Source: Candidatus Gracilibacteria bacterium CG12_big_fil_rev_8_21_14_0_65_38_15 (GTDB lineage: Bacteria > Patescibacteriota > Gracilibacteria > BD1-5 > UBA2023). From it: 33,524 bases of DNA. Of this stretch, positions 4,667 to 33,524 are shown piece after piece; position 1 is the stretch's first letter; each line of letters begins with the position of its first letter. Below the pieces are notes generated by a model. It was not told where the DNA came from, searched no databases, and saw only the letters and a program-made list of their open reading frames with translations. A program made the position numbers and the translations under genes. The stretch spans positions 1-33,524 of the forward strand of contig PCUR01000073.1 of the NCBI GenBank assembly GCA_002771035.1, given 5' to 3'.

Positions 4667-5337
4667 CGGTATTCTCCCACATCCAATACGAGGTGAAGTT
4701 TCGCGCCAGATGGTCAGATATCGATTGCCATCGGTGCAGAAGTAGTGGTGGATTCTCTGTAAGTATTGATTCCCGGGTGAGATGTAATCATTCCTTCTCG
4801 TGTAATCAAAATTTTTGGAACAGCCACTGAATATACTCTTCCTTCGAAACCTATTTCCAGTCTTGCTGTATTTTGTTCATAATGAACATAGAGAGGTTTT
4901 TTAGTGTAATAATTACTTTTTCGATCCATCTTGAGATTGATATCATATCGAGTGAAACCTTTTGAAACAAATCCTTCTTCTCTGTAATCAGGAGCGGAAT
5001 CACTGGTTGCGAGTTGTACATCGATTACCGAATAACGACCGTCGGCAAATCCTCCGAGTACATCGATATCGCAATACGATCCTGTCATAATTCTCAGTGG
5101 AGTGACTTGTTTTGTTTCAATCGAAGTTTCTTGAGAAGATAATTGTCTCTCTTTTTGTATTTCCTCGATTTGATTCAAAACTCCCGCCATTTCATTGAGC
5201 TTGTCTAGCTTCGCTTTTCATTTGAGTTTCGGTAGTTCTTCTTTGGACATCTGATCGTATGCATCGCAATAAGATCGGAGAAGATCTACTTTTCTGTCAG
5301 GAGAAGATTGGGGAAGATTTTCACAAGCGTCTGCCAT
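4663..5337 (-). CDS. hypothetical protein
   Basis: 224-residue soluble protein that I do not recognise. The first 65 residues are rich in charged helix formers (DRKVDLLRSYCDAYDQMSKE, then LPKLKGKAKLDKLNEMAGV) and probably form a helical bundle or short coiled coil. The rest is beta-rich (TPLRIMTGSYCDIDVLGG, YSVIDVQLATSDSAPDYR, KSNYYTKKPLYVHYEQNTA). There is no signal peptide or membrane helix. The start at 5337 keeps the full charged N-terminal region; an internal methionine at 5190 would remove it. One TGA-glycine lies at 4714. It overlaps tatD tail to tail by 4 bp. Confidence 0.7.
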
Positions 5338-5444
5338 AAAATTTAATTTTAAAGATAATATGTATCCATATTATCATATCCTCCTTTCTTTTGCAAAAAA
5401 ACACAAAGTTCTTACAATCAGAGTATTATTTTCCCACTGACTTT

Positions 5445-6872
5445 ATGGACTTTCGACTTTGTAAACTTACCCATTCCAAGGAAAATCGAAGTGGTTTCAC
5501 TCTTATCGAGGTTCTTCTCGCTATCACTCTTTCGGCGATTCTTATGACTGGGATTGTCATATTTGTTTCCAGCTCGCTCGGGTCGAATATGGCGACAAAG
5601 AAGATACTCGAGGATGGAAATAAGAATGAGAAATTCGAACAATATCTTACGCAAACGCTTGGAAATATTACGGGGAGCGGATTTTATGCGACTGGCTCAA
5701 TTTTCGGTGACTATCTCACCGGGATATTTCTCTCCACAGGGAGTCCGAATCTTCCTATCACTTTCCTCGGACTTAAAACCGAGACAGGGTATTGCGATAG
5801 TTATGAGGGAACAGCTGATGCCACCGGAACTATTCTTAAATTGGCGATACGACAATTTGCCGTTCCAACAGAACAAAGCAATGTCCCTGGATATACTCTC
5901 TCATCCACCGGGAATTCCATTTCTTTCGGTACAAATCGCATTATTGGAACCGGATATCCGGGAAATAGTTTGGATACAACTTCCTGAGCTCTGACGGAAC
6001 TCTCATCGCCGAGTGCCATTATATTATCAGGAAGTAATCTCTATGTCGCCGACACGATGAACGATCGTGTTTTATCGTATAATACGAGTCTTGGAACTAT
6101 AATCGAGCTTCTCGGGCGGGCGGACGGTATACGAAAACCGACGAGTCTGTATTTCTCGGGAAATACACTCCTCATCGCGAGCAGTGGAAACGGGAAAATT
6201 TACAGCCTCCAAGATGGAGACTTGGGTAATGGTTCTACTTTTTCTAGCACTTTTCAAGTAGCAAATGTTTTCCAAGCAGATACTATCCGATTTACGTTTT
6301 CTGGAATATCTTCTGTTACTCAACCAACGACAACCGGAGATTTTATTTTGGACGGAGTAACTCAAAAACTGAACGATGTTGTAACTCCCGGAACAAACTT
6401 GCAATATACTCTCTCGTGAGGAGTTCAAAATTTTTCAGCGGGAACTTCGTATAAATTCACGGTAAGTAATATTTCAACTCCACCGACAACTCCTGGAAAT
6501 TACACGGTACAGATAGATTTCCAGAGCGGAACTACCGTCAATTATTCCGATACTTTTCATTATTTCTCAAAATGAGATGGTACTCTGGAAGATGATACTG
6601 GGAATATCCTAAAAACACTCGCTTCAAATATCGACTATCCTCATAATATAACAGGATCAAGCAGTTGGAGTAGTACGATTAATTGGAATACAGTTTTTTC
6701 CAGCAATCCTTCCTGAGACGAGATAACTTCCTATTTTCCCATTCAGGATATTGATTTTCAGAAAACTGGAAAAATCCTCACGATTCGATATCATGAATAT
6801 ACCAATTACGATTGCATTCTCGAGAAACACCGAACGGAAGAAAGAATCTGGAAAATACCATTACCCGAGTAA
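5445..6872 (+). CDS. pseudopilin-like protein with NHL-like repeats
   Basis: 475 residues. It begins with a type IV pilin/pseudopilin prepilin signal: a short charged leader ending SKENRSG, then FTLIEVLLAITLSAILMTGIVIFVSS, with glutamate at +5 of the mature chain. A prepilin peptidase would cut after the Gly. The mid-region holds two NHL/beta-propeller-like units (SAIILSGSNLYVADTMNDRV and TSLYFSGNTLLIASSGNGKI), followed by Ser/Thr-rich beta sequence. Several glycines are TGA (5986, 6417, 6571, 6715). The start at 5445 gives a 17-residue leader; an upstream TTG at 5391 would lengthen it by 18 residues and cannot be excluded. The gene is followed at once by a strong bidirectional terminator. 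It is probably a minor pilin or surface adhesin. Confidence 0.75.
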
Positions 6873-6873
6873 T

Positions 6874-6905
6874 AAAAAACCTCTTTTATTGAAAAGAGGT
6901 TTTTT
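6874..6905. terminator. bidirectional Rho-independent terminator
   Basis: Perfect 14-bp stem (AAAAAACCTCTTTT and its complement) with a 4-nt loop. It is A-rich on one side and T-rich on the other, so it works in both directions. It sits between the convergent pseudopilin-like gene and the T4SS-pilin-like gene. Confidence 0.9.
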
Positions 6906-6916
6906 ATTCAAGTATC

Positions 6917-7345
6917 CTAAAGTTCCGAGAAGTCGGCGGGAAGTGTATTGTTTCCTCCAGAAGATCCAGAAGAAATATCGATTGTGTCTTTATTTCCAAG
7001 CAATTTTCCAGAAAGATCCTGGATAGTCGTGAATATTACTTTCGGGGAAACATACTTAGAAACATTGAGTCCGAGAAGATCTCCTACTTTCGGAGCAACA
7101 AATATGGAAAGAATAATAACAATAAGTCCGATTACCGCATAACGAATACTGTTAATAGCGGGCTTTACCTTTTCATCCTTTCCTCCTGACAATATAAGCA
7201 TAACTCCTCACCAAAGGATAAAAATAACAGAAAGAAATCCAGAAATAAGCACTACGAGAGCGATTCCTACACGGATAATATCATTGATATTATATATTTT
7301 GTTTGGATCAATGGCAGAACCTGCAGCGAAAGCGATATCAAACAT
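6917..7345 (-). CDS. small two-helix membrane protein, T4SS-pilin-like
   Basis: 142 residues. A short N-terminal segment (MFDIAFAAGSAIDPN) resembles the processed end of a VirB2/TrbC-like subunit. Two hydrophobic helices follow at about 23-52 and 62-87, then a C-terminal tail that is Gly/Ser-rich at its end. This layout is typical of the small pilin-like proteins found beside VirB6/TrbL-like genes in Candidate Phyla bacteria. The identification rests on topology rather than a diagnostic motif. One TGA-glycine lies in FILWGGVML (near 7202). The related membrane protein gene sits far away at 19869-22121. Confidence 0.6.
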
Positions 7346-7374
7346 AGGAGAAGTTGGAAAGAAATATTGTTTGT

Positions 7375-7402
7375 ACTATATTCAGAGAAAGAGAAAAGTA
7401 AA
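7375..7402 (-). promoter_or_regulatory. predicted promoter of the T4SS-pilin-like gene
   Basis: On the minus strand TTTACT, 16 nt, then TATAGT, about 30 nt upstream of the start at 7345. The boxes match the sigma-70 consensus moderately. Confidence 0.4.
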
Positions 7403-7448
7403 GTTTTTTGGATATAAAGGGGAATATGCTATAAATCCCAAGAAAAAA

Positions 7449-7476
7449 TTGATATCTCTCCATTTTTTCATACTAT
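7449..7476 (+). promoter_or_regulatory. predicted promoter of the yggT-ftsW pair
   Basis: TTGATA at 7449-7454, 16 nt, then TACTAT at 7471-7476. The predicted leader before the start at 7504 is about 20 nt. Confidence 0.5.
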
Positions 7477-7503
7477 GCAAACATATTAAAAATAATCCAT
7501 CGT

Positions 7504-7785
7504 ATGACGCTTCTTATTTTTTCTCTTCTTATTTTCCTTTCACTCATTCAATGGGTGGTTTTCATTGATGTTATACTCTCATGGGGAACCCTTGTAGGAA
7601 TACATTTTCGTCCAAAGTTCATAGTAGCAATAACGCTTCCGCTTTATGAAACAGTGAGACGATTCATTCCTTCTTCGTTCAGCGGAATTGATTTTTCTCC
7701 AATCATTGTATTTATTGCCATCGAACTTATATCGAAGCTTCTTATCGCGATAGATCCGAGTGTTTTAGCTTTATTACCAAGATAA
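7504..7785 (+). CDS. YggT-family membrane protein
   Basis: 93-residue integral membrane protein with two hydrophobic segments and the YggT-type arrangement: VVFIDVILSWGTLVG, then the amphipathic LPLYETVRRFIPSSFSGIDFSPIIVFIAIELI. YggT proteins are linked to envelope, osmotic and division functions in other bacteria, with no defined reaction. It lies 12 nt upstream of ftsW in the same orientation and shares its promoter. Confidence 0.8.
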   Translation: MTLLIFSLLIFLSLIQWVVFIDVILSWGTLVGIHFRPKFIVAITLPLYETVRRFIPSSFSGIDFSPIIVFIAIELISKLLIAIDPSVLALLPR

Positions 7786-7797
7786 AATCAATTATTT

Positions 7798-9015
7798 ATG
7801 CAATCTAAAAGTATCGATTACTCCATATTTTTTATCGTTCTTTCGCTTATTGTGTTCGGAATGATTATGATAAGTTCCGTGAGCGTCTATCCTTCTTTCA
7901 AGGTAACATCTTTTATGGTAACGAAAGGACTGCTTGTTGAACCGAATAATTATTTCTATCTTCTCAAAAATATTACTCATGTAATTCTCGGGTTTTTACT
8001 TTTTGCTATTGTCGTAAAAACTCCTTTTTCTTTTTTTGAGAAATATGCGAAACATATTTTTATTGCGGGGATTTCTTCTCTCATTCTCGTACTTTTTATA
8101 GGAGCCACCTATAATGGAGCAAGGGGATGGATTAATGTTCCGTTTCTGCCGTTTTCCATTCAACCGGTTGAGTTTATGAAGTTCGGACTCATTATTTACC
8201 TCGCGTATTTTCTCAAAAGACGTCGTTCGCAGATTGCCGATTTTTATAACGGATTTTTGCCGTATATGTTCAATTTTGTGATTATCATGTTCCTCTTGGT
8301 TCTCCAGCCAGACTTCGGTTCTATACTTATCTGTACGCCGCTTGTTGTTGCTATGTTTTTCGTCGGATGAGGTAATACAAAACATCTTCTTGCATCAGCG
8401 TGAGTATTTATAATATTCGCTCTCTCCATCTATGGACTCTGAAAACATTCGACTCCAACCGATAGGAATTCTTTCTCGTATATAACAGATCGAGTAGATA
8501 ACTTCCTTGCAGATAATCAGGATGCAATCAGAAATAAAACCATCAATTTCCAAACAGAACAAGGACTTATCGCCATCGGAAGCGGTGGATTTTTCGGGCT
8601 CGGATTCGGGAAATCTATACAGAAATTCGGATATCTTCCCGAAGTGGAAGGGGATTTTATTTTCTCGGTTATCGCAGAAGAACTCGGATTTCTCTGAGTC
8701 CTTTTCTTGGTATCACTCTATCTGTATATCTGATGGCGAGGTTTTCTCATCGCCGAAGCTTCGCAGGATATTTTTGGGAAATATGTCGCTACAGGAATCA
8801 CTACTCTTCTTCTCACACAGGCTTTTATCAATATAGGAGTTAATCTCAATATCCTTCCACTTACCGGAATAACCCTTCCGTTCATCAGCTACGGAGGTTC
8901 CTCACTTCTCTCTCTTATGCTCGCGATGGGAGTACTCCTTAATATTTCACGTACTGCTGATTTTGCCAAAGTGGAAAATAAAGTCGGATTATTCCGGAGG
9001 AATAAGGTACGATAA
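7798..9015 (+). CDS. ftsW: peptidoglycan polymerase FtsW (SEDS family)
   Basis: 405-residue multi-pass membrane protein of the SEDS family (FtsW/RodA), which polymerises lipid II into glycan strands. Hallmarks are GARGWINVPFLPFSIQPVEF in the first half, VLQPDFGSILI, and the C-terminal LPLTGITLPFISYGGSSLL. Ten or so hydrophobic helices are visible. Five conserved glycines are TGA (8368, 8401, 8439, 8697, 8731), so standard-code translation stops at residue 190. FtsW is preferred over RodA because of the FISYGGSSLL signature, but paralogues are hard to separate by eye. Its stop is one base away from the stop of the convergent surface-protein gene. Confidence 0.93.
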
Positions 9016-9016
9016 A

Positions 9017-9823
9017 TTAATGCACAACACAAACTACATCGGGGTCAGCCCCATTTCTATAGAAAGCCCCTACGGTTAATCCACCAGCGATTGCATTTGC
9101 ATTATTTGTATACACAGGAAGTCCTACAACATGTAATTTGCTTTTTGGGTTTATAGTCCCGATTCCTACGTTACCACTCGAATCAATACGAACTCGCTCT
9201 GTACCATAACTAGCATTTGTAGTTCATAATGGCAATCCTGTTGGACCAGTATAAAATGCAAGACCCGTCGGCATATCAGAACTTGAATTAAATATATTAT
9301 CGGCATATCCAGATATAGATGCTGAATAGAGGAGATTTGATTCTGTTCCGTTAGTTTGATTACCACCAAAATATATTGTTCATAGTCTTTTCCCACTTGT
9401 TACAGCACCTTGTGTATTTAGTCCGGCAAGAGCAAGTCCTCCGCCAAATGTCTGGGATGAATTATTATCACTCCGTCTCCCTTGTACTTCAAGTACTGGA
9501 GAAGGATTACTTGCTCTATTGTCATAGATAAGTATTCCACCACTTGGTGTAGATCATCCTATAGTCAATCTGCTTGTTGGATTTACTCCTATCCCCACAT
9601 TTTCTCCTGAGAATGAAAGATTCTCCAATCGTGTATTGATATCTAATACTCCATCCACAATCCGATTCCATGCAGTTGCAGTAAGACCTGAGCCAGTTCA
9701 TACTTTATCCGCAACAGTAAGTCCCCCGAAGAGAGCTCCGTATCCAACAGAAAGCACAAGAAGAGTACTAAAGAATATAACTGCTGAATAGATGGATTTC
9801 TTCCAAAAAGAAAGAGTTTTCAT
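9017..9823 (-). CDS. tail-fibre-like surface protein
   Basis: 268 residues. The N-terminus has a basic start and one hydrophobic helix (WKKSIYSAVIFFSTLLVLSVGYGALFGG in pieces), a signal peptide or membrane anchor. Two copies of a motif of the form NVGIGxNPxSxLxxxG occur near residues 75-92 and 233-250. This motif is common in phage tail-fibre/tailspike and S74-type surface proteins, but no C-terminal S74 chaperone domain is visible. The sequence between is Gly/Ser/Asn-rich, as in trimeric beta-helical fibres. Four glycines are TGA. No other phage genes are nearby, so I infer a cellular surface protein or adhesin rather than a prophage remnant. Confidence 0.7.
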
Positions 9824-9909
9824 ACAAGAAACATAAAAAAAATAAATTAAAACCAGTATTGCATTTCTTTTCAATAAATCAAGTTTCGCTTTAAAAATAT
9901 AATTTTCTC

Positions 9910-9937
9910 TTGCTTTTTAAATTAGCACGTATATAAT
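9910..9937 (+). promoter_or_regulatory. clpB promoter
   Basis: TTGCTT at 9910-9915, 16 nt, then a perfect TATAAT at 9932-9937. The -10 box lies inside the CIRCE-like palindrome, so a repressor bound there would block RNA polymerase. Confidence 0.65.
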
Positions 9938-9948
9938 GTATGTGCTAA
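9922..9948 (+). promoter_or_regulatory. CIRCE-like HrcA operator
   Basis: Inverted repeat TTAGCAC / GTGCTAA with a total span of exactly 27 bp, the 9-9-9 arrangement of the CIRCE element (consensus TTAGCACTC-N9-GAGTGCTAA). The outer seven bases of each arm are perfect; the inner two deviate. CIRCE is bound by the heat-shock repressor HrcA, so clpB is probably derepressed on heat shock. Confidence 0.8.
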
Positions 9949-9969
9949 ATTATATTTCATAACTCTCAT

Positions 9970-10064
9970 GATTTCAAAATATATTTTCTCCCTTCCTGCG
10001 GGACTCGCTCTATTGATAGCTCAGACATAGTCCTCGGTAGCGGTCGAAAGCATATTTTGAAATC
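9970..10064 (+). other. long clpB leader with distant 13-bp inverted repeat
   Basis: The predicted clpB leader is about 165 nt. It holds a perfect 13-bp inverted repeat, GATTTCAAAATAT at 9970-9982 and its complement at 10052-10064, enclosing 69 nt that are GC-richer than the surroundings. A short frame from 9969 (MISKYIFSLPAGLALLIAQT, then TAG) is probably not a gene. A structured 5' UTR is the likelier reading. Confidence 0.45.
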
Positions 10065-10109
10065 CTAACTATCTACTGGATTTTCATTTACTTCATAATC
10101 TTCTCACTT

Positions 10110-12782
10110 ATGAATACGGAAAAATACACTCTATCCGCTTCCAAACGGCTAGAGGAAGCACAGAATATCGCTATAACGAGTGGAAACCCATCACTCGAAA
10201 GTATTCACCTTCTCTCTTCTATCCTGCTCGCAAAAGAGAGTATTAATCATGAACTCCTTGGACGAGTCGGAGTGGAGGTGGAAACCTTTGCAAAACGTGT
10301 AACCGAACAATTGGAACGCCTTCCGAAAACGAGTGGCGGATCTGGTAGTCTCACTCTTTCTCAGGAATTAAATACTGTCATAGCCTACGCGGATACTCTT
10401 GCGAAAACTATGCAGGACAGTTACATTACCGAGGAACATTTGTTTCTCTCACTTATCGAAAAATCCTCCAGTCTAAAGGAACTTTTTAAGACTTTCAGTA
10501 TCACTTTTGATATCTATAAAAAGGAGGTGGAAAACCTTCGAGGAGGCGAGAAAGTTACTTCCAACGATGCCGAGAATCTCTACGAAGCACTCAAGAAATA
10601 CACTATCGATCTCGTCCTAATGGCGAAGAAAGGAAAAATCGATCCCGTAATCGGACGTGAAGAAGAAATACATAGAACTATTCAGATACTTTCCCGACGA
10701 ACGAAGAATAATCCCGTTCTCATCGGAGATCCTGGAGTCGGTAAAACCGCCATCGTCGAGGGAATCGCCCGAAAAATCGTCGAAGGCGATGTTCCAGATG
10801 TACTCAAAAACAAACGAATACTCACACTCGATCTCGGAGCACTCATTGCCGGAGCCAAGTACCGCGGAGAGTTTGAAGAACGTCTGAAAGGAGTTCTGAA
10901 AGAGGTCGAAAAATCCGATGGAAATATCATTCTTTTTATTGACGAAGTCCACACCATCGTCGGGGCTGGAAACCAGGAAGGATGAGCTGATGCTGGAAAC
11001 CTTTTAAAACCCGCTCTCGCTCGCGGAGCCATCAAAGTTATCGGAGCGACGACCATCAATGAATACCGAAAATACATCGAAAAGGATCAAGCCTTGGAAC
11101 GCCGGTTCCAACAGGTCATGGTCGATGAACCGAATACGGACGATGCAATTGCAATTCTTCGTGGAATCAAGGACAAATATGAAGCTTTTCATGGAATCAA
11201 AATCACTGACCGAGCCATTGTTGCTGCAGTGGAACTCTCGGTCAAATACATCGCCGATCGCAAGCTCCCGGACAAAGCCATCGATCTCATAGACGAAGCA
11301 GCATCGAGCGTGAAAATGAGTTCAACCAGTAAGCCGATTGAACTCGATAAGCTCGAGAAAGAAATCCGTTCTCTGGAAATCCAGAAAGAAGCTCTTAAAG
11401 CAGAGAAAACACAAGATCCGAAAACAAACAGCGACCTTGAAAAGGAATTGGCGGACAAGCAAGAGCAATTTCGTACAAAACTTTCGAAGTGGCAACGGGA
11501 AAAAGATCTGATTATTTCCGTGAAAACCAATAAAGAGAAAATAGAATCTCTGAAGAATGAAGCAATAGAACTCGAACGTGATGCAGATTATGCCGGAGTT
11601 GCGCGCATCCGATACGGAGAAATACCAGTTCTTGAAAAAATAATCGAATGAGTCGAACAAGAACTCGCGGAGATTCAAAAGAAAGGAGAATCCTTCCTTC
11701 GAGAGAAGGTAGATATCGAAGATATTGCAGAGATTATTGCGAAATGGACCAGAATCCCGGTCGGGAAACTCGTGGAAGGAGAAGGTGAAAAATATCTCCA
11801 TCTTTTTGAACAACTCTCCGCGCATGTAGTCGGACAGGATAATGCTCTCCGTCTCGTTTCCGAAGCAATCCAGCGAAATAAGGCAGGACTCTCGGACCCC
11901 GAAAAACCAATTGGAAGTTTCTTATTTCTCGGACCTACTGGAGTCGGTAAAACCGAAACCGCGAAAGCGCTCGCTACTGAACTTTTCAACGATCCTCACT
12001 CTATGATTCGCATCGATATGAGCGAATATGGAGAAGCACATACGGTCGCTCGACTCATCGGTTCACCTCCCGGATACATCGGACACGAGGAAGGTGGACA
12101 ATTGACCGAAGCAGTACGCCGAAAACCCTACTCAGTCATACTTTTCGACGAGATAGAAAAAGCTCACACTGACGTATTCAATGTATTCCTCCAGATCCTC
12201 GACGACGGACGATTGACCGACGGAAAAGGACGAACAGTGAGTTTCAAAAATACGATTATTATCATGACGAGTAATGTCGGAAGTCACTTAATTTCTTCAT
12301 ATCTAGAAAATAAACCCCCTGTATTCCCCTTCTCAGGGGGACAAGAAAAAGATACCGCTATTGCCTCCCTGACAAGGGAGGTGCCCGTAGGGCGGAGGGT
12401 TTTGGAGGACGACGGAGGGGTGCAAAAAACCATTATGAGTGAACTCAAAAATCACTTCCGTCCAGAGTTCCTGAACCGCATCGACGACATCGTGGTCTAT
12501 AATCCACTCTCGGAAGAAGTTCTCTCCGGAATCGTAGAAATCCTCCTACAGGATGTGACGAATCTTCTCGCAGAAAAACATATCACAGTTTCGTATGATG
12601 CAAGTTTGAAAAAAGAACTCATCGCCACCGGATACGACCGAGAATTCGGCGCACGACCGCTCAAACGGGCGATTACCCGAATGGTTATAAATCCACTCTC
12701 GACCAAGATTCTCTCAGGAGAACTCATGGATGGAATGAGTGTGAAACTCAGTATGAAAGAAGGGGAATTGAAAATCTCGTAA
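10110..12782 (+). CDS. clpB: ATP-dependent disaggregase ClpB
   Basis: 890-residue HSP100 chaperone that extracts polypeptides from aggregates together with DnaK. Domains in order: N domain (about 1-145), first AAA+ module with Walker [10 protein letters not shown] near residue 206 and Walker B ILFIDEVH, coiled-coil middle domain (about 400-520), and second AAA+ module with GPTGVGKTE near 608, [19 protein letters not shown], and sensor/arginine-finger [11 protein letters not shown]. Two glycines are TGA (10984 and 11650). An insertion of about 40 residues (about 733-775) lies between TSNVGSHLI and the FRPEFLNR segment and is encoded by hairpin-rich DNA. The gene is alone behind a CIRCE-like operator and ends at a palindromic terminator. 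Confidence 0.97.
12310..12430 (+). repeat. hairpin-rich palindromic element inserted in frame in clpB
   Basis: This segment looks unlike the surrounding gene. It is G/C-run-rich with two hairpins: CCCCCTG/CAGGGGG at 12315-12340, and CCTCCCT/AGGGAGG at 12364-12381, followed by GCCCGTAGGGCGGAGGG. It encodes about 40 low-complexity residues ([27 protein letters not shown]) absent from ordinary ClpB, and keeps the frame. No second copy is visible in the window. Confidence 0.6.
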
Positions 12783-26189: not shown

Positions 26190-26219
26190 TGGGTAAATAG
26201 AATTTTTTGCGTGCTACTT
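26190..26219 (+). repeat. IS left terminal inverted repeat
   Basis: 30 bp, the exact reverse complement of 27276-27305 over at least 29 positions. The transposase stop codon (26214-26216) lies within it. Confidence 0.88.
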
Positions 26220-27193
26220 GTTATTCCGAAAATAGATCCAAAGTGCTACAAAAGAATATAATCTGTGTTCTGATAATCATTTATGTTCATTGATTCATTC
26301 GTTGGTAAAAACTCAGAAGTATCATTCCAGTTTGTTCGTTGATCTTTCGATGTTGCTATCAGTATACCGATAGCCCTGAAACATATATGGCAGAGCATTG
26401 TCGATATGCTTCATTGCTTTTCTAAGACTCGTATGAGTAAAGATCCATCATCCCTTTCGGGAGATGGATCTTTCAGTAAGATACGGGAGATGTTTTTCTT
26501 TCCACTTCTCAAACAGTTTCGGGAAGAGTAGAGGATTTGAAAGAGGAGGATAATTCAAGATATGAAGTAAACTTACTCCTGCCTCGGATTTCGGATGATT
26601 GGATATATAATTGATCACTTGTCTTTGGATATGTACCAGACAACGCTGAATGATGGAGTTTGGATACACGGATTTTATGGCGGAGAGAATGCTCGGAGAA
26701 CCATCTATGACAAAAACTGTTATCTTATATCAGAAAGAATCTCGTAGTATTCGTAAGTCATGAACTATCGCATCTTTGTTTTCAGAGGAAGTCACACTGA
26801 ACCAGAGAACCTTCTTGATGATATACTCGTAGTACACAAGGAGTATTTTCCCTCATGGAAGATGGTATCAATCTATCATGACATATCCTACGTTATCAAA
26901 GTACTCATCTATGTGTAGTAACCTATTTATTCTCATCCAATCTCTTTTGAATATCAAGACGAACGAGATACTCTTGTCTTCCTGATTGGTTTGCTATCTG
27001 TCGTGCTGAATATCACTCGATGATGTATTGGTTAAACCAGAATTTAGTCCTGAATTTTGTTTCTTGTTTCTGAACTTTTCTTTCTACGAAACGATATTTA
27101 CACGTTTTGCATTGTAAAGTGGAATTTCAAACCATATTTTTCCCATTTCTCTTGATGGAAGTACCAGAACATTTCGGACATTTTTTTTCTCAT
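26214..27193 (-). pseudogene. IS transposase, DDE type, with two frame breaks
   Basis: Corrected length about 325 residues. Order: N-terminal zinc ribbon (MRKK-CPKCSGTSIKRNGK and LQCKTCKYRF), helix-turn-helix region (YSARQIANQSGRQEYLVRLD), then the catalytic domain with Asp in VGYVMIDGYHLPGG, Asp in VFVIDGSPS followed by IIQRCLVHIQRQV, and Glu in RSTNKLEGYFG, ending GLSEHRLYILFVALWIYF. The QRCLVHxQR block and the zinc ribbon suggest the IS1249 branch of IS256. Two +1 breaks occur: an A8 tract right after the start (27181-27188), and near 26945 (AATAAATAG). Removing one A at each restores one frame. About ten glycines are TGA. It may be inactivated, or expressed by slippage. Confidence 0.75.
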
Positions 27194-31405: not shown

Positions 31406-32194
31406 TTAGAATCCGCTGATTGGATAGGCTACACGCGTATTCGCATCGAACGTACTTCCGTTGTAGGATTCCCCATCTTTGAGATTATTATTTGTTGTAC
31501 CGCTTCCGATAAGTGTATCCGGACAATTGATACAAGTGGATTTATCGAAATTACCGGAAATCTTGGTGATTATACCCTTTTGATCATCGGAAACAACAAC
31601 GGCGAGATTATAGGCAGAACCTTTTTTGGAAGTACTATCCCAAAGAGTATTATTTTTTGCATACACCCCATAAACATATTCTCCGATTCCATAGTCTTTG
31701 AGAGTTTCTGTATTTCCCACTTTTATATCCTTAACGGAAGGATCGGAAAGTTCCTGGGAGAGGTATTGTTTAGGGAGAACATCTGAATCCATTGTTCCTT
31801 TTGCACCAACTTTATTTACTGCACTTCCAGATTCATAAACAATTCCTCCTCCAACAATTGAACCAGTAAGAACCGTGACTATTGCATCACCACTTTTTGT
31901 TCCAGTAAAAGTATTTGCAATAGTGGCACTTGTTGCACTATCGAATCCCCATACATTTGTATCTGCATTATATATCGAAGGCATCGGATAGTAATTCTTG
32001 TCGACAAAGAAGGTATTGAGTCCTGTTTCGATATTTCCGATATGATTCAGTTTCGTTGCATTTTTCGCCTTATCGGTAGAACCAGAAAAACTTGTATAAG
32101 CAGTGATACTGATAATTGCAAGAATAGTAATAACGACCAAAAGTTCCACAAGTGTAAAACCACGAGTAGGAAAAACAATATTCTTCTGTTCCAT
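31406..32194 (-). CDS. type IV pilin-like protein
   Basis: 262 residues. The leader ends PTRG and is followed by FTLVELLVVITILAIISITAYTSF, a textbook prepilin N-terminus with Glu at +5. Cleavage after Gly would give a mature chain of about 250 residues. The pseudopilin-like body has KNATKLNHIGNIETGLNTFFVDKNYYPMP (in pieces), as in major pilins and type II secretion pseudopilins. A C-terminal CINC pair may form the disulphide of the D-region. No TGA-glycine occurs. It has its own promoter and lies between the CRISPR array and clpP. Confidence 0.88.
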   Translation of the reverse strand: MEQKNIVFPTRGFTLVELLVVITILAIISITAYTSFSGSTDKAKNATKLNHIGNIETGLNTFFVDKNYYPMPSIYNADTNVWGFDSATSATIANTFTGTKSGDAIVTVLTGSIVGGGIVYESGSAVNKVGAKGTMDSDVLPKQYLSQELSDPSVKDIKVGNTETLKDYGIGEYVYGVYAKNNTLWDSTSKKGSAYNLAVVVSDDQKGIITKISGNFDKSTCINCPDTLIGSGTTNNNLKDGESYNGSTFDANTRVAYPISGF

Positions 32195-32255: not shown

Positions 32256-32306
32256 GTAAATCTTCATTTTATTATTTTTTCTATATAAAAACTTTATTTT
32301 ATCTGA

Positions 32307-32354
32307 GAATTGTCTATTTAATCATTAAATTTTCTTAAAATTTATAGACAATTC
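32307..32354. repeat. inverted repeat at the CRISPR trailer end
   Basis: Perfect 11-bp arms GAATTGTCTAT (32307-32317) and ATAGACAATTC (32344-32354), 26 nt apart, with a smaller hairpin inside (AAATTTT/AAAATTT). It ends 3 nt before the last CRISPR repeat. It could end the pre-crRNA transcript. Confidence 0.6.
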
Positions 32355-32357
32355 AAT

Positions 32358-33524
32358 ATCTACAACAGTAGAAATCTTATGGTGGCTTTAGAGGTATATT
32401 AAGTCTGCTTCGGATACTAATCTACAACAGTAGAAATCTTATGGTGGCTTTAGAGAGATGTTATCGTTGGATTATCACTTCATCTACAACAGTAGAAATC
32501 TTATGGTGGCTTTAGAGATATACGATATAAAGTACGCTCTATCATCTACAACAGTAGAAATCTTATGGTGGCTTTAGAGTTTATCCTTCGCCCATACATA
32601 ATTATATCTACAACAGTAGAAATCTTATGGTGGCTTTAGAGTATCACTTTTGGGTAGAAATGCCCACCATCTACAACAGTAGAAATCTTATGGTGGCTTT
32701 AGAGACTCCTGATGAGTTTGTAGTTACCAATCTACAACAGTAGAAATCTTATGGTGGCTTTAGAGACGGAAGGAAAGCATTTATGAGAGACATCTACAAC
32801 AGTAGAAATCTTATGGTGGCTTTAGAGAATCTTTTATTGACATCGCCACCTTTATCTACAACAGTAGAAATCTTATGGTGGCTTTAGAGTATCGAGCTCA
32901 TCACACCGATTGGTGATCTACAACAGTAGAAATCTTATGGTGGCTTTAGAGACATTCGTTTTTATATCTCGTATTTGATCTACAACAGTAGAAATCTTAT
33001 GGTGGCTTTAGAGCAGTATATTCTTTTTTCTCTTGAAGTATCTACAACAGTAGAAATCTTATGGTGGCTTTAGAGGTATACAGTCTTATCAAGTCCGCCG
33101 AATCTACAACAGTAGAAATCTTATGGTGGCTTTAGAGTCCAATATGTCAAAGACCAGACGGAATCTACAACAGTAGAAATCTTATGGTGGCTTTAGAGCT
33201 GGAAGAAATAAGAAAAGCAGGTGAATCTACAACAGTAGAAATCTTATGGTGGCTTTAGAGATGTATTTTTTGCTAATTGTTTTTCTATCTACAACAGTAG
33301 AAATCTTATGGTGGCTTTAGAGACTTCGATAGTAGGTACAGACTTGGTATCTACAACAGTAGAAATCTTATGGTGGCTTTAGAGGATGACTCACTCCCAT
33401 ATTCTCGGGAATCTACAACAGTAGAAATCTTATGGTGGCTTTAGAGCTCCTCGGGCTTAAAGATGATTATCAATCTACAACAGTAGAAATCTTATGGTGG
33501 CTTTAGAGGATAATAATCCTCGAT
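32358..33524 (-). CRISPR. type V-A (Cas12a) CRISPR array, truncated by window edge
   Basis: Nineteen identical 36-nt repeats from 32358 (period about 62 nt), 18 complete spacers of 25-27 nt (mostly 26) and a 16-nt partial spacer at the right edge. On the minus strand each repeat ends in TTTCTACTGTTGTAGAT, the Cas12a crRNA 3' hairpin TCTAC-TGTT-GTAGA (established signature). The array is therefore transcribed leftwards, the leader lies beyond 33524, and the repeat at 32358 is the oldest, trailer end. No repeat shows decay, and all spacers differ. No cas gene is in the window. Confidence 0.97.

What the first reader, a model, noticed from the sequence alone, without database searches (positions are those of the whole stretch)
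32358..33524. Cas12a-type array in a recoded Candidate Phyla bacterium
Nineteen perfectly conserved repeats with the TCTAC-TGTT-GTAGA hairpin and short 26-nt spacers. In ultra-small bacteria CRISPR is uncommon, and spacers may come from phages that also use TGA as glycine. Several spacers read as plausible coding sequence in one frame (e.g. the spacer at 33199-33224).
Basis: partly seen in the sequence, partly recalled or inferred. Interest (0 to 1): 0.7.

Follow-up and report, generated by a model that had tools for sequence, protein, structure and literature searches.

The report
Recoded Cas12a CRISPR array, split contig
This is the far end of an ordinary, apparently intact Cas12a (type V-A) CRISPR immune memory in a tiny bacterium that reads the stop codon TGA as glycine; its cas genes lie on a second contig, where a toxin-antitoxin pair sits inside the cas operon, an arrangement that recurs in distant relatives and deserves a test.

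Summary
Window 32358-33508 holds 19 identical 36-nt repeats with 18 spacers of 25-27 nt, plus a cut spacer at the contig end. The main interpretation also holds: contig C28 of the same genome carries the only other copies of the repeat (three), preceded by cas12a (1,329 aa, catalytic residues intact, 23 in-frame TGA), cas4, cas1, cas2 and a leader. Two sister species carry the flanking genes of both contigs side by side without any CRISPR. So the two contigs are one locus, a discrete insertion in a variable slot, and the window holds its leader-distal (oldest) end. The Cas12a tree places this effector among standard-code Patescibacteria, so the gene was probably acquired and then recoded. No protospacer was found, so the phage-code and PAM ideas stay untested. 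Type V-A systems in TGA=Gly Gracilibacteria are already published (PMC10746230); this is a new member of a known kind. The less ordinary point is outside the window: a RelE-type toxin-antitoxin pair between cas12a and cas4. Across 77 Cas12a loci this junction takes insertions in 26 (cas4-cas1: 2 of 71; cas1-cas2: 0 of 68), and six hold RelE-superfamily pairs, about five independent events. Functional coupling is unproven.

The parts
32358..33508 (-). CRISPR array, leader-distal part: 19 identical 36-nt repeats, 18 full spacers (25-27 nt)
   Evidence: hairpin fold
33509..33524 (-). 16 nt of a further spacer, cut by the contig end; the array continues on contig C28 (L010 11899-12091, three more repeats) after a gap of unknown length
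   Evidence: adjacency of the two contigs by synteny in sister species
32307..32354 (-). A+T-rich stem-loop directly after the last repeat, possible end of the array transcript
   Evidence: z -2.6; function inferred only
32271..32279 (.). right breakpoint: sister-species DNA aligns up to here from the pilin side; everything from here into the array, and the cas genes on C28 back to about L010:5013, is absent in the sisters
31406..32194 (-). flanking gene: type IV pilin-like protein (N-terminal methylation motif), syntenic in sister species; not part of the CRISPR system

Best explanation
A canonical type V-A (Cas12a) CRISPR-Cas locus, split by the assembly into two contigs. Order: cas12a, a RelE-type toxin-antitoxin pair, cas4, cas1, cas2, leader, array; the window holds the leader-distal part of the array. 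Mechanism, by homology: Cas1-Cas2 with Cas4 insert ~26-bp pieces of invader DNA at the leader end (on C28); the array is transcribed from the leader toward the pilin gene; each repeat ends in the Cas12a handle; Cas12a uses each crRNA to find and cut matching double-stranded DNA next to a T-rich PAM. The effector was probably acquired horizontally from a standard-code Patescibacterium and then took up TGA glycine codons. Shown: array, gene content, intact catalytic residues, recoding, insertion site. Inferred: expression, crRNA processing, PAM, immunity, and any role of the toxin-antitoxin pair.
For: The repeat occurs in only two contigs of the genome, each running into the contig end inside the array. 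Cas12a: TIGR04330 847 bits, PADLOC Cas12a E=0, RuvC/REC1/NUC Pfam domains. RuvC D938, E1023, D1280 and Nuc R1240 are present in all 16 aligned proteins that reach them. Type V Cas4 (TIGR04328) and Cas1 (TIGR04329) are over cut-off, Cas2 too. A promoter-like site lies in the leader (about 1.8 such sites expected by chance). In sister species G194 and G141 the order ftsQ-rbfA-AbiEi-like gene-(1.1-1.3 kb of unrelated DNA)-pilin-ClpP-TyrS joins the flank of C28 to the flank of the window, without cas genes or repeats in that gap. Code: 23 of 75 glycines in cas12a are TGA, and these columns are Gly in 48 of 115 residues of standard-code relatives, next best Lys 12. Tree: the window's Cas12a sits in a clade with standard-code L043, L124, L080, L112 (SH-aLRT 100), apart from the same-family L049 and the code-25 clade L045-L048. 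Two spacers (one on C28, one in the window) agree at 18 of 26 bases in register (3 of 2,000 shuffled sets reach 18), as if taken from homologous invaders.
Against: No protospacer was found, so targets and PAM are unknown. The gap between the contigs was not sequenced, so the full repeat number is unknown. The pre-crRNA-processing histidine and lysine of FnCas12a (H843, K852) fall in a loop missing here and short or different in its relatives, so processing by the same residues is not assured. No expression data.
Confidence: 0.95

Rival explanations
1. The array in the window is an orphan, or contig C28 is a contaminant of another organism binned with this genome, so array and cas12a do not belong together.
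For: The two contigs are not joined in the assembly.
Against: Repeats are identical over 36 nt on both contigs; both contigs end inside the array; genes of C28 (rbfA 89% identical) and of the window (ClpP 91-93%) are neighbours in two sister species.
Confidence: 0.02
2. The toxin-antitoxin pair inside the cas operon is an addiction guard: losing or silencing the cas operon frees the RelE-type toxin, so the CRISPR locus is retained. It would be a protein counterpart of CreTA.
For: It is the only PF05016 (ParE/RelE-superfamily) match in the 1.01-Mb genome, and it lies between cas12a and cas4 on the same strand. RelE-superfamily pairs with different antitoxin types (MazE/AbrB-, RelB- and Phd/YefM-like where assignable) stand at the same junction in L046, L047, L056, L086 and L146, about five independent events. 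Insertions favour this junction: 26 of 77, against 2 of 71 and 0 of 68 for the next two junctions.
Against: Close homologues of this toxin are scattered over the order; the cas12a loci fetched there did not show it, although linkage of every copy was not checked. The same junction also accepts RhuM, Bro-N, HNH and second effectors, so it may simply be the tolerant seam between two modules. Six of 77 is a minority. The antitoxin matched no Pfam family.
Confidence: 0.2
3. The locus is decaying and no longer active.
For: It is absent from five other genomes of the genus; no protospacer found.
Against: All repeats including the last are identical, all four cas genes are open under code 25, catalytic residues intact.
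Confidence: 0.05

Closest known systems
Type V-A (Cas12a/Cpf1) CRISPR-Cas of Gracilibacteria and Absconditabacteria (Liu et al. 2023, PMC10746230)
   Same: Same effector family, same cas1, cas2, cas4 complement, same TGA=Gly host clade; nine of their V-A systems also had unannotated ORFs inside the cas operon
   Different: Here the inserted ORFs are identified as a RelE-type toxin-antitoxin pair, the effector groups with standard-code bacteria, and the empty site is seen in sister species
FnCas12a (PDB 5NG6, 6I1K) and the Cas12a-type protein of PDB 8QWD
   Same: Closest solved sequences; catalytic residues and the PAM-side K/N motif are kept
   Different: The loop that carries two of the FnCas12a pre-crRNA-processing residues is missing
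CreTA / CreR (RNA-based guards and regulators in CRISPR loci; reviewed in PMC12737573)
   Same: A toxin-antitoxin element nested in a CRISPR-Cas locus (CreTA)
   Different: Here both partners are predicted proteins, and no degenerate repeat or crRNA-like RNA was found in the own locus
RelE / ParE-superfamily type II toxins (RelE3, PDB 3BPQ; E. coli RelE)
   Same: Small downstream toxin-like gene of a two-gene unit; phmmer E=2.5e-5 to RelE3, 0.013-0.02 to RelE
   Different: Just below the Pfam gathering score (22.1 against 23 bits); antitoxin not assignable to a family

Membership tests
CRISPR-Cas type V-A | Array of ~36-nt repeats ending in UCUAC-N3-5-GUAGA(U), short spacers | tested here: met
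CRISPR-Cas type V-A | Cas12a effector with RuvC and Nuc and intact catalytic residues | tested here: met
   D938, E1023, D1280, R1240
CRISPR-Cas type V-A | cas4-cas1-cas2 next to the leader end of the array, same strand | tested here: met
CRISPR-Cas type V-A | 5' T-rich PAM (TTTV) at protospacers | not testable with these tools
   no protospacer found in phages, plasmids, 353 genomes of the class, or IMG/VR for the spacers scanned
CRISPR-Cas type V-A | Cas12a cuts its own pre-crRNA (FnCas12a H843, K852, K869) | tested here: inconclusive
   H843 and K852 align to a gap in the window's protein, and the loop is short or different across the class; activity not testable
Genetic code 25 (TGA=Gly) | In-frame TGA codons at positions that are glycine in relatives | tested here: met
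   23 TGA columns, Gly 48 of 115 aligned residues in standard-code relatives
Type II toxin-antitoxin, RelE/ParE superfamily (the pair in the cas operon) | Antitoxin gene followed by a RelE/ParE-fold toxin gene | tested here: inconclusive
   toxin: PF05016 E=2.4e-4, slightly under the curated score, and RelE3 E=2.5e-5; antitoxin: no family, but the pair is conserved at L160 and L162
CreTA / CreR | Degenerate repeat plus partial match to a cas or toxin promoter | tested here: not met
   no degenerate repeat near the cas genes of the own locus; lone repeat found only in L042

The most novel reading that the evidence does not exclude
Protein toxin-antitoxin pairs of the RelE superfamily are recruited repeatedly, in different phyla and with different antitoxin types, into the seam between the effector and the adaptation genes of type V-A loci, where they act as addiction guards or as a second, abortive line of defence when Cas12a is lost or blocked.
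Probability: 0.2. Interest if true: 0.65.

Novelty: new member of a known kind. Interest (0 to 1): 0.36.

Why it matters
As a CRISPR array it is one more recoded type V-A system, useful mainly as a clean case: a cas12a of probable standard-code ancestry that now carries 23 TGA glycine codons, so it would no longer be readable in standard-code bacteria; an insertion site with two empty sister genomes; and a spacer set to test against phages of TGA=Gly hosts. The recurring toxin-antitoxin insertion between effector and adaptation genes offers a concrete candidate for what some of the unannotated ORFs inside these operons (left open in PMC10746230) are, and a testable idea that class 2 CRISPR loci, too, may be guarded by toxins.

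Tried and rejected
Protospacer search: all 21 complete spacers by blastn against phages and plasmids (none), against 353 genomes of the class (only an A-rich spacer at 22-23 nt in two genomes, taken as chance; the first look scored only two candidates of the own genome, so self-targeting elsewhere is not excluded), eight IMG/VR pattern scans that together covered eleven spacers, in full or by their first 18 bases. The one IMG/VR hit matches the first 18 of 26 bases, then breaks off, and has no TTTV PAM: chance. A genome-collection scan with the single Cas12a protein found nothing; with the alignment it found 291, of which 80 were kept. The AbiEi-like gene divergent from cas12a was considered as a regulator and rejected: it is at the same place in sister species without CRISPR. 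Rfam has no family matching the array. Degenerate repeats near the own cas genes: none convincing.

Full report
OBSERVATION. The window (contig C66 of a 1.01-Mb genome in 74 contigs, 97.75% complete) ends in 19 perfect copies of a 36-nt repeat at 32358-33508 with 18 full spacers of 25-27 nt and a 16-nt spacer fragment at the contig end. The transcript strand is minus; the repeat ends in the UCUAC-UGUU-GUAGA stem-loop, the Cas12a handle.

THE REST OF THE LOCUS. The same 36-nt repeat occurs in only one other contig, C28. C28 (L010, 12,091 bp) carries cas12a (5113-9102, 1,329 aa), two small genes (9173-9502, 9504-9764), cas4 (about 9833-10384), cas1 (10439-11407), cas2 (11412-11687), a leader of about 210 bp with a promoter-like site, and three repeats running into the contig end. 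Families: Cas12a TIGR04330 847 bits; Cas4 and Cas1 are the type V forms TIGR04328 and TIGR04329. RuvC D938, E1023, D1280 and Nuc R1240 are kept in all 16 aligned relatives that reach them.

ONE LOCUS, ONE INSERTION. In two sister species of the same genus without Cas12a, the flank of C28 (ftsQ, rbfA, an AbiEi-like gene) and the flank of the window (pilin, ClpP, TyrS, Csd) are neighbours, with 1.1-1.3 kb of unrelated DNA between the AbiEi-like gene and the pilin gene. Nucleotide similarity stops at about L010:5013 on one side and window 32271-32279 on the other. So C28 and the window are joined through the array; the whole V-A locus is a discrete insertion in a variable slot; and the window holds the leader-distal spacers. 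The number of repeats is at least 22; the gap length is unknown.

CODE AND ORIGIN. TGA is read as glycine: the 23 in-frame TGA codons of cas12a fall on glycine in 48 of 115 aligned residues of standard-code relatives. TGA makes up 31% of glycine codons in cas12a against 10% in 25 other genes of the two contigs. A Cas12a tree places the window's protein with standard-code Patescibacteria (clade of five, SH-aLRT 100), not with the same-family code-25 protein of G079 (about 31% identical by BLAST) nor with the code-25 clade L045-L048. The simplest reading is horizontal gain from a standard-code donor followed by recoding; a code-25 intermediate donor is not excluded, and the high TGA share may favour it.

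TARGETS. No protospacer was found. The set of 21 spacers has more open frames than shuffled spacers (4.19 against 3.58, sd 0.21), as expected for coding DNA, without telling the code. Two spacers, L010 11997-12022 and window 33323-33348, agree at 18 of 26 bases in register (3 of 2,000 shuffled sets reach 18) and share the first 8 bases, as if taken from the same gene of two diverged invaders. PAM and phage code remain untested.

PAIR INSIDE THE OPERON. Between cas12a and cas4 lie a 109-aa gene without a family match and an 86-aa RelE/ParE-superfamily gene (PF05016 E=2.4e-4; RelE3 E=2.5e-5). It is the only PF05016 match in the genome. Homologous pairs exist elsewhere in the order (L160, L162). 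In 77 non-redundant loci with cas12a and cas4, this junction is at least 250 bp wide in 26; cas4-cas1 in 2 of 71; cas1-cas2 in 0 of 68. Three further loci from the phylum sample (L180, L182, L183; L184 repeats L080) show no insertion. The insertions are: RelE-superfamily toxin-antitoxin pairs in six loci (L010; L046 and L047; L056 RelB-YafQ; L086 MazE/AbrB-ParE-like; L146 YefM-YoeB), five RhuM proteins (L111, L120, L145 confirmed by Pfam; L137, L152 by sequence likeness), two Bro-N proteins, about eleven second effectors (Cas12a-family by PADLOC where tested), an HNH protein, and a lone repeat. L152 counts twice (second effector and RhuM); one more wide gap, L141, is a broken reading frame of cas12a itself. 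L046 and L047 are sister loci, so about five independent events. With roughly one to a few such toxins per ~1,000 genes, chance would give well under one at a fixed junction (my estimate, not a computed test). The junction is the seam between effector and adaptation modules, so tolerance for insertions is the ordinary explanation; guarding is possible and testable. The searches of the held papers turned up CreTA, CreR and CrePA but no type II pair in V-A operons in what was read; subscription papers and supplements were not seen.

VERDICT. Observation confirmed; interpretation as a Cas12a system in a recoded bacterium confirmed; statements on phage code untested. Known kind: Liu et al. 2023 (PMC10746230) report type V-A as the main CRISPR system of TGA=Gly Gracilibacteria.

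Noticed in passing
L010 9173-9502 and 9504-9764 (contig C28 of the window's genome): RelE-type toxin-antitoxin pair between cas12a and cas4, the only PF05016 match in the genome; similar pairs at the same junction in L046, L047, L056, L086, L146.
   Followed up: partly
L047 259-724: Second toxin-antitoxin-like pair (MazE-like gene plus a small RelE-like gene without a Pfam match) between cas2 and the array of G285.
   Followed up: no
L042 10914 (lone repeat) and 10706 minus: Single Cas12a repeat between cas12a and cas4; the 10 nt after it (AAGTATGAGT) match a site with a TTTC PAM 200 bp away in the same intergenic region: looks like a CreR-type autoregulatory crRNA in a recoded bacterium.
   Followed up: partly
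L045 9870-13313, L048 125-3646, L051 118-3873, L055 1726-5025, also L084, L087, L098, L102, L105, L117, L121, L140, L152: Second, divergent Cas12-type effector next to cas12a, four of them in code-25 genomes; possibly Cas12a2/Cas12a3-like proteins, not assigned further.
   Followed up: partly
L111, L120, L145 (Pfam), L137, L152 (by likeness); L106, L147: RhuM and Bro-N proteins recur at the cas12a-cas4 junction.
   Followed up: partly
L176 11374-12666, L177 13046-14168: The empty slot holds a different unknown protein gene in each sister species (about 380 and 268 aa open frames): a variable cargo site next to an AbiEi-like gene.
   Followed up: no
L010 11820-11885: Long stem-loop in the leader just before the first repeat (TTTAAGCCAAGAAG ... 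CTTCTTTGGCTTAAA); whole-leader fold not better than shuffles (z -1.2).
   Followed up: partly
window 26217-26957: Fragment of a Mutator-family transposase (PF00872, E=2.1e-8).
   Followed up: no
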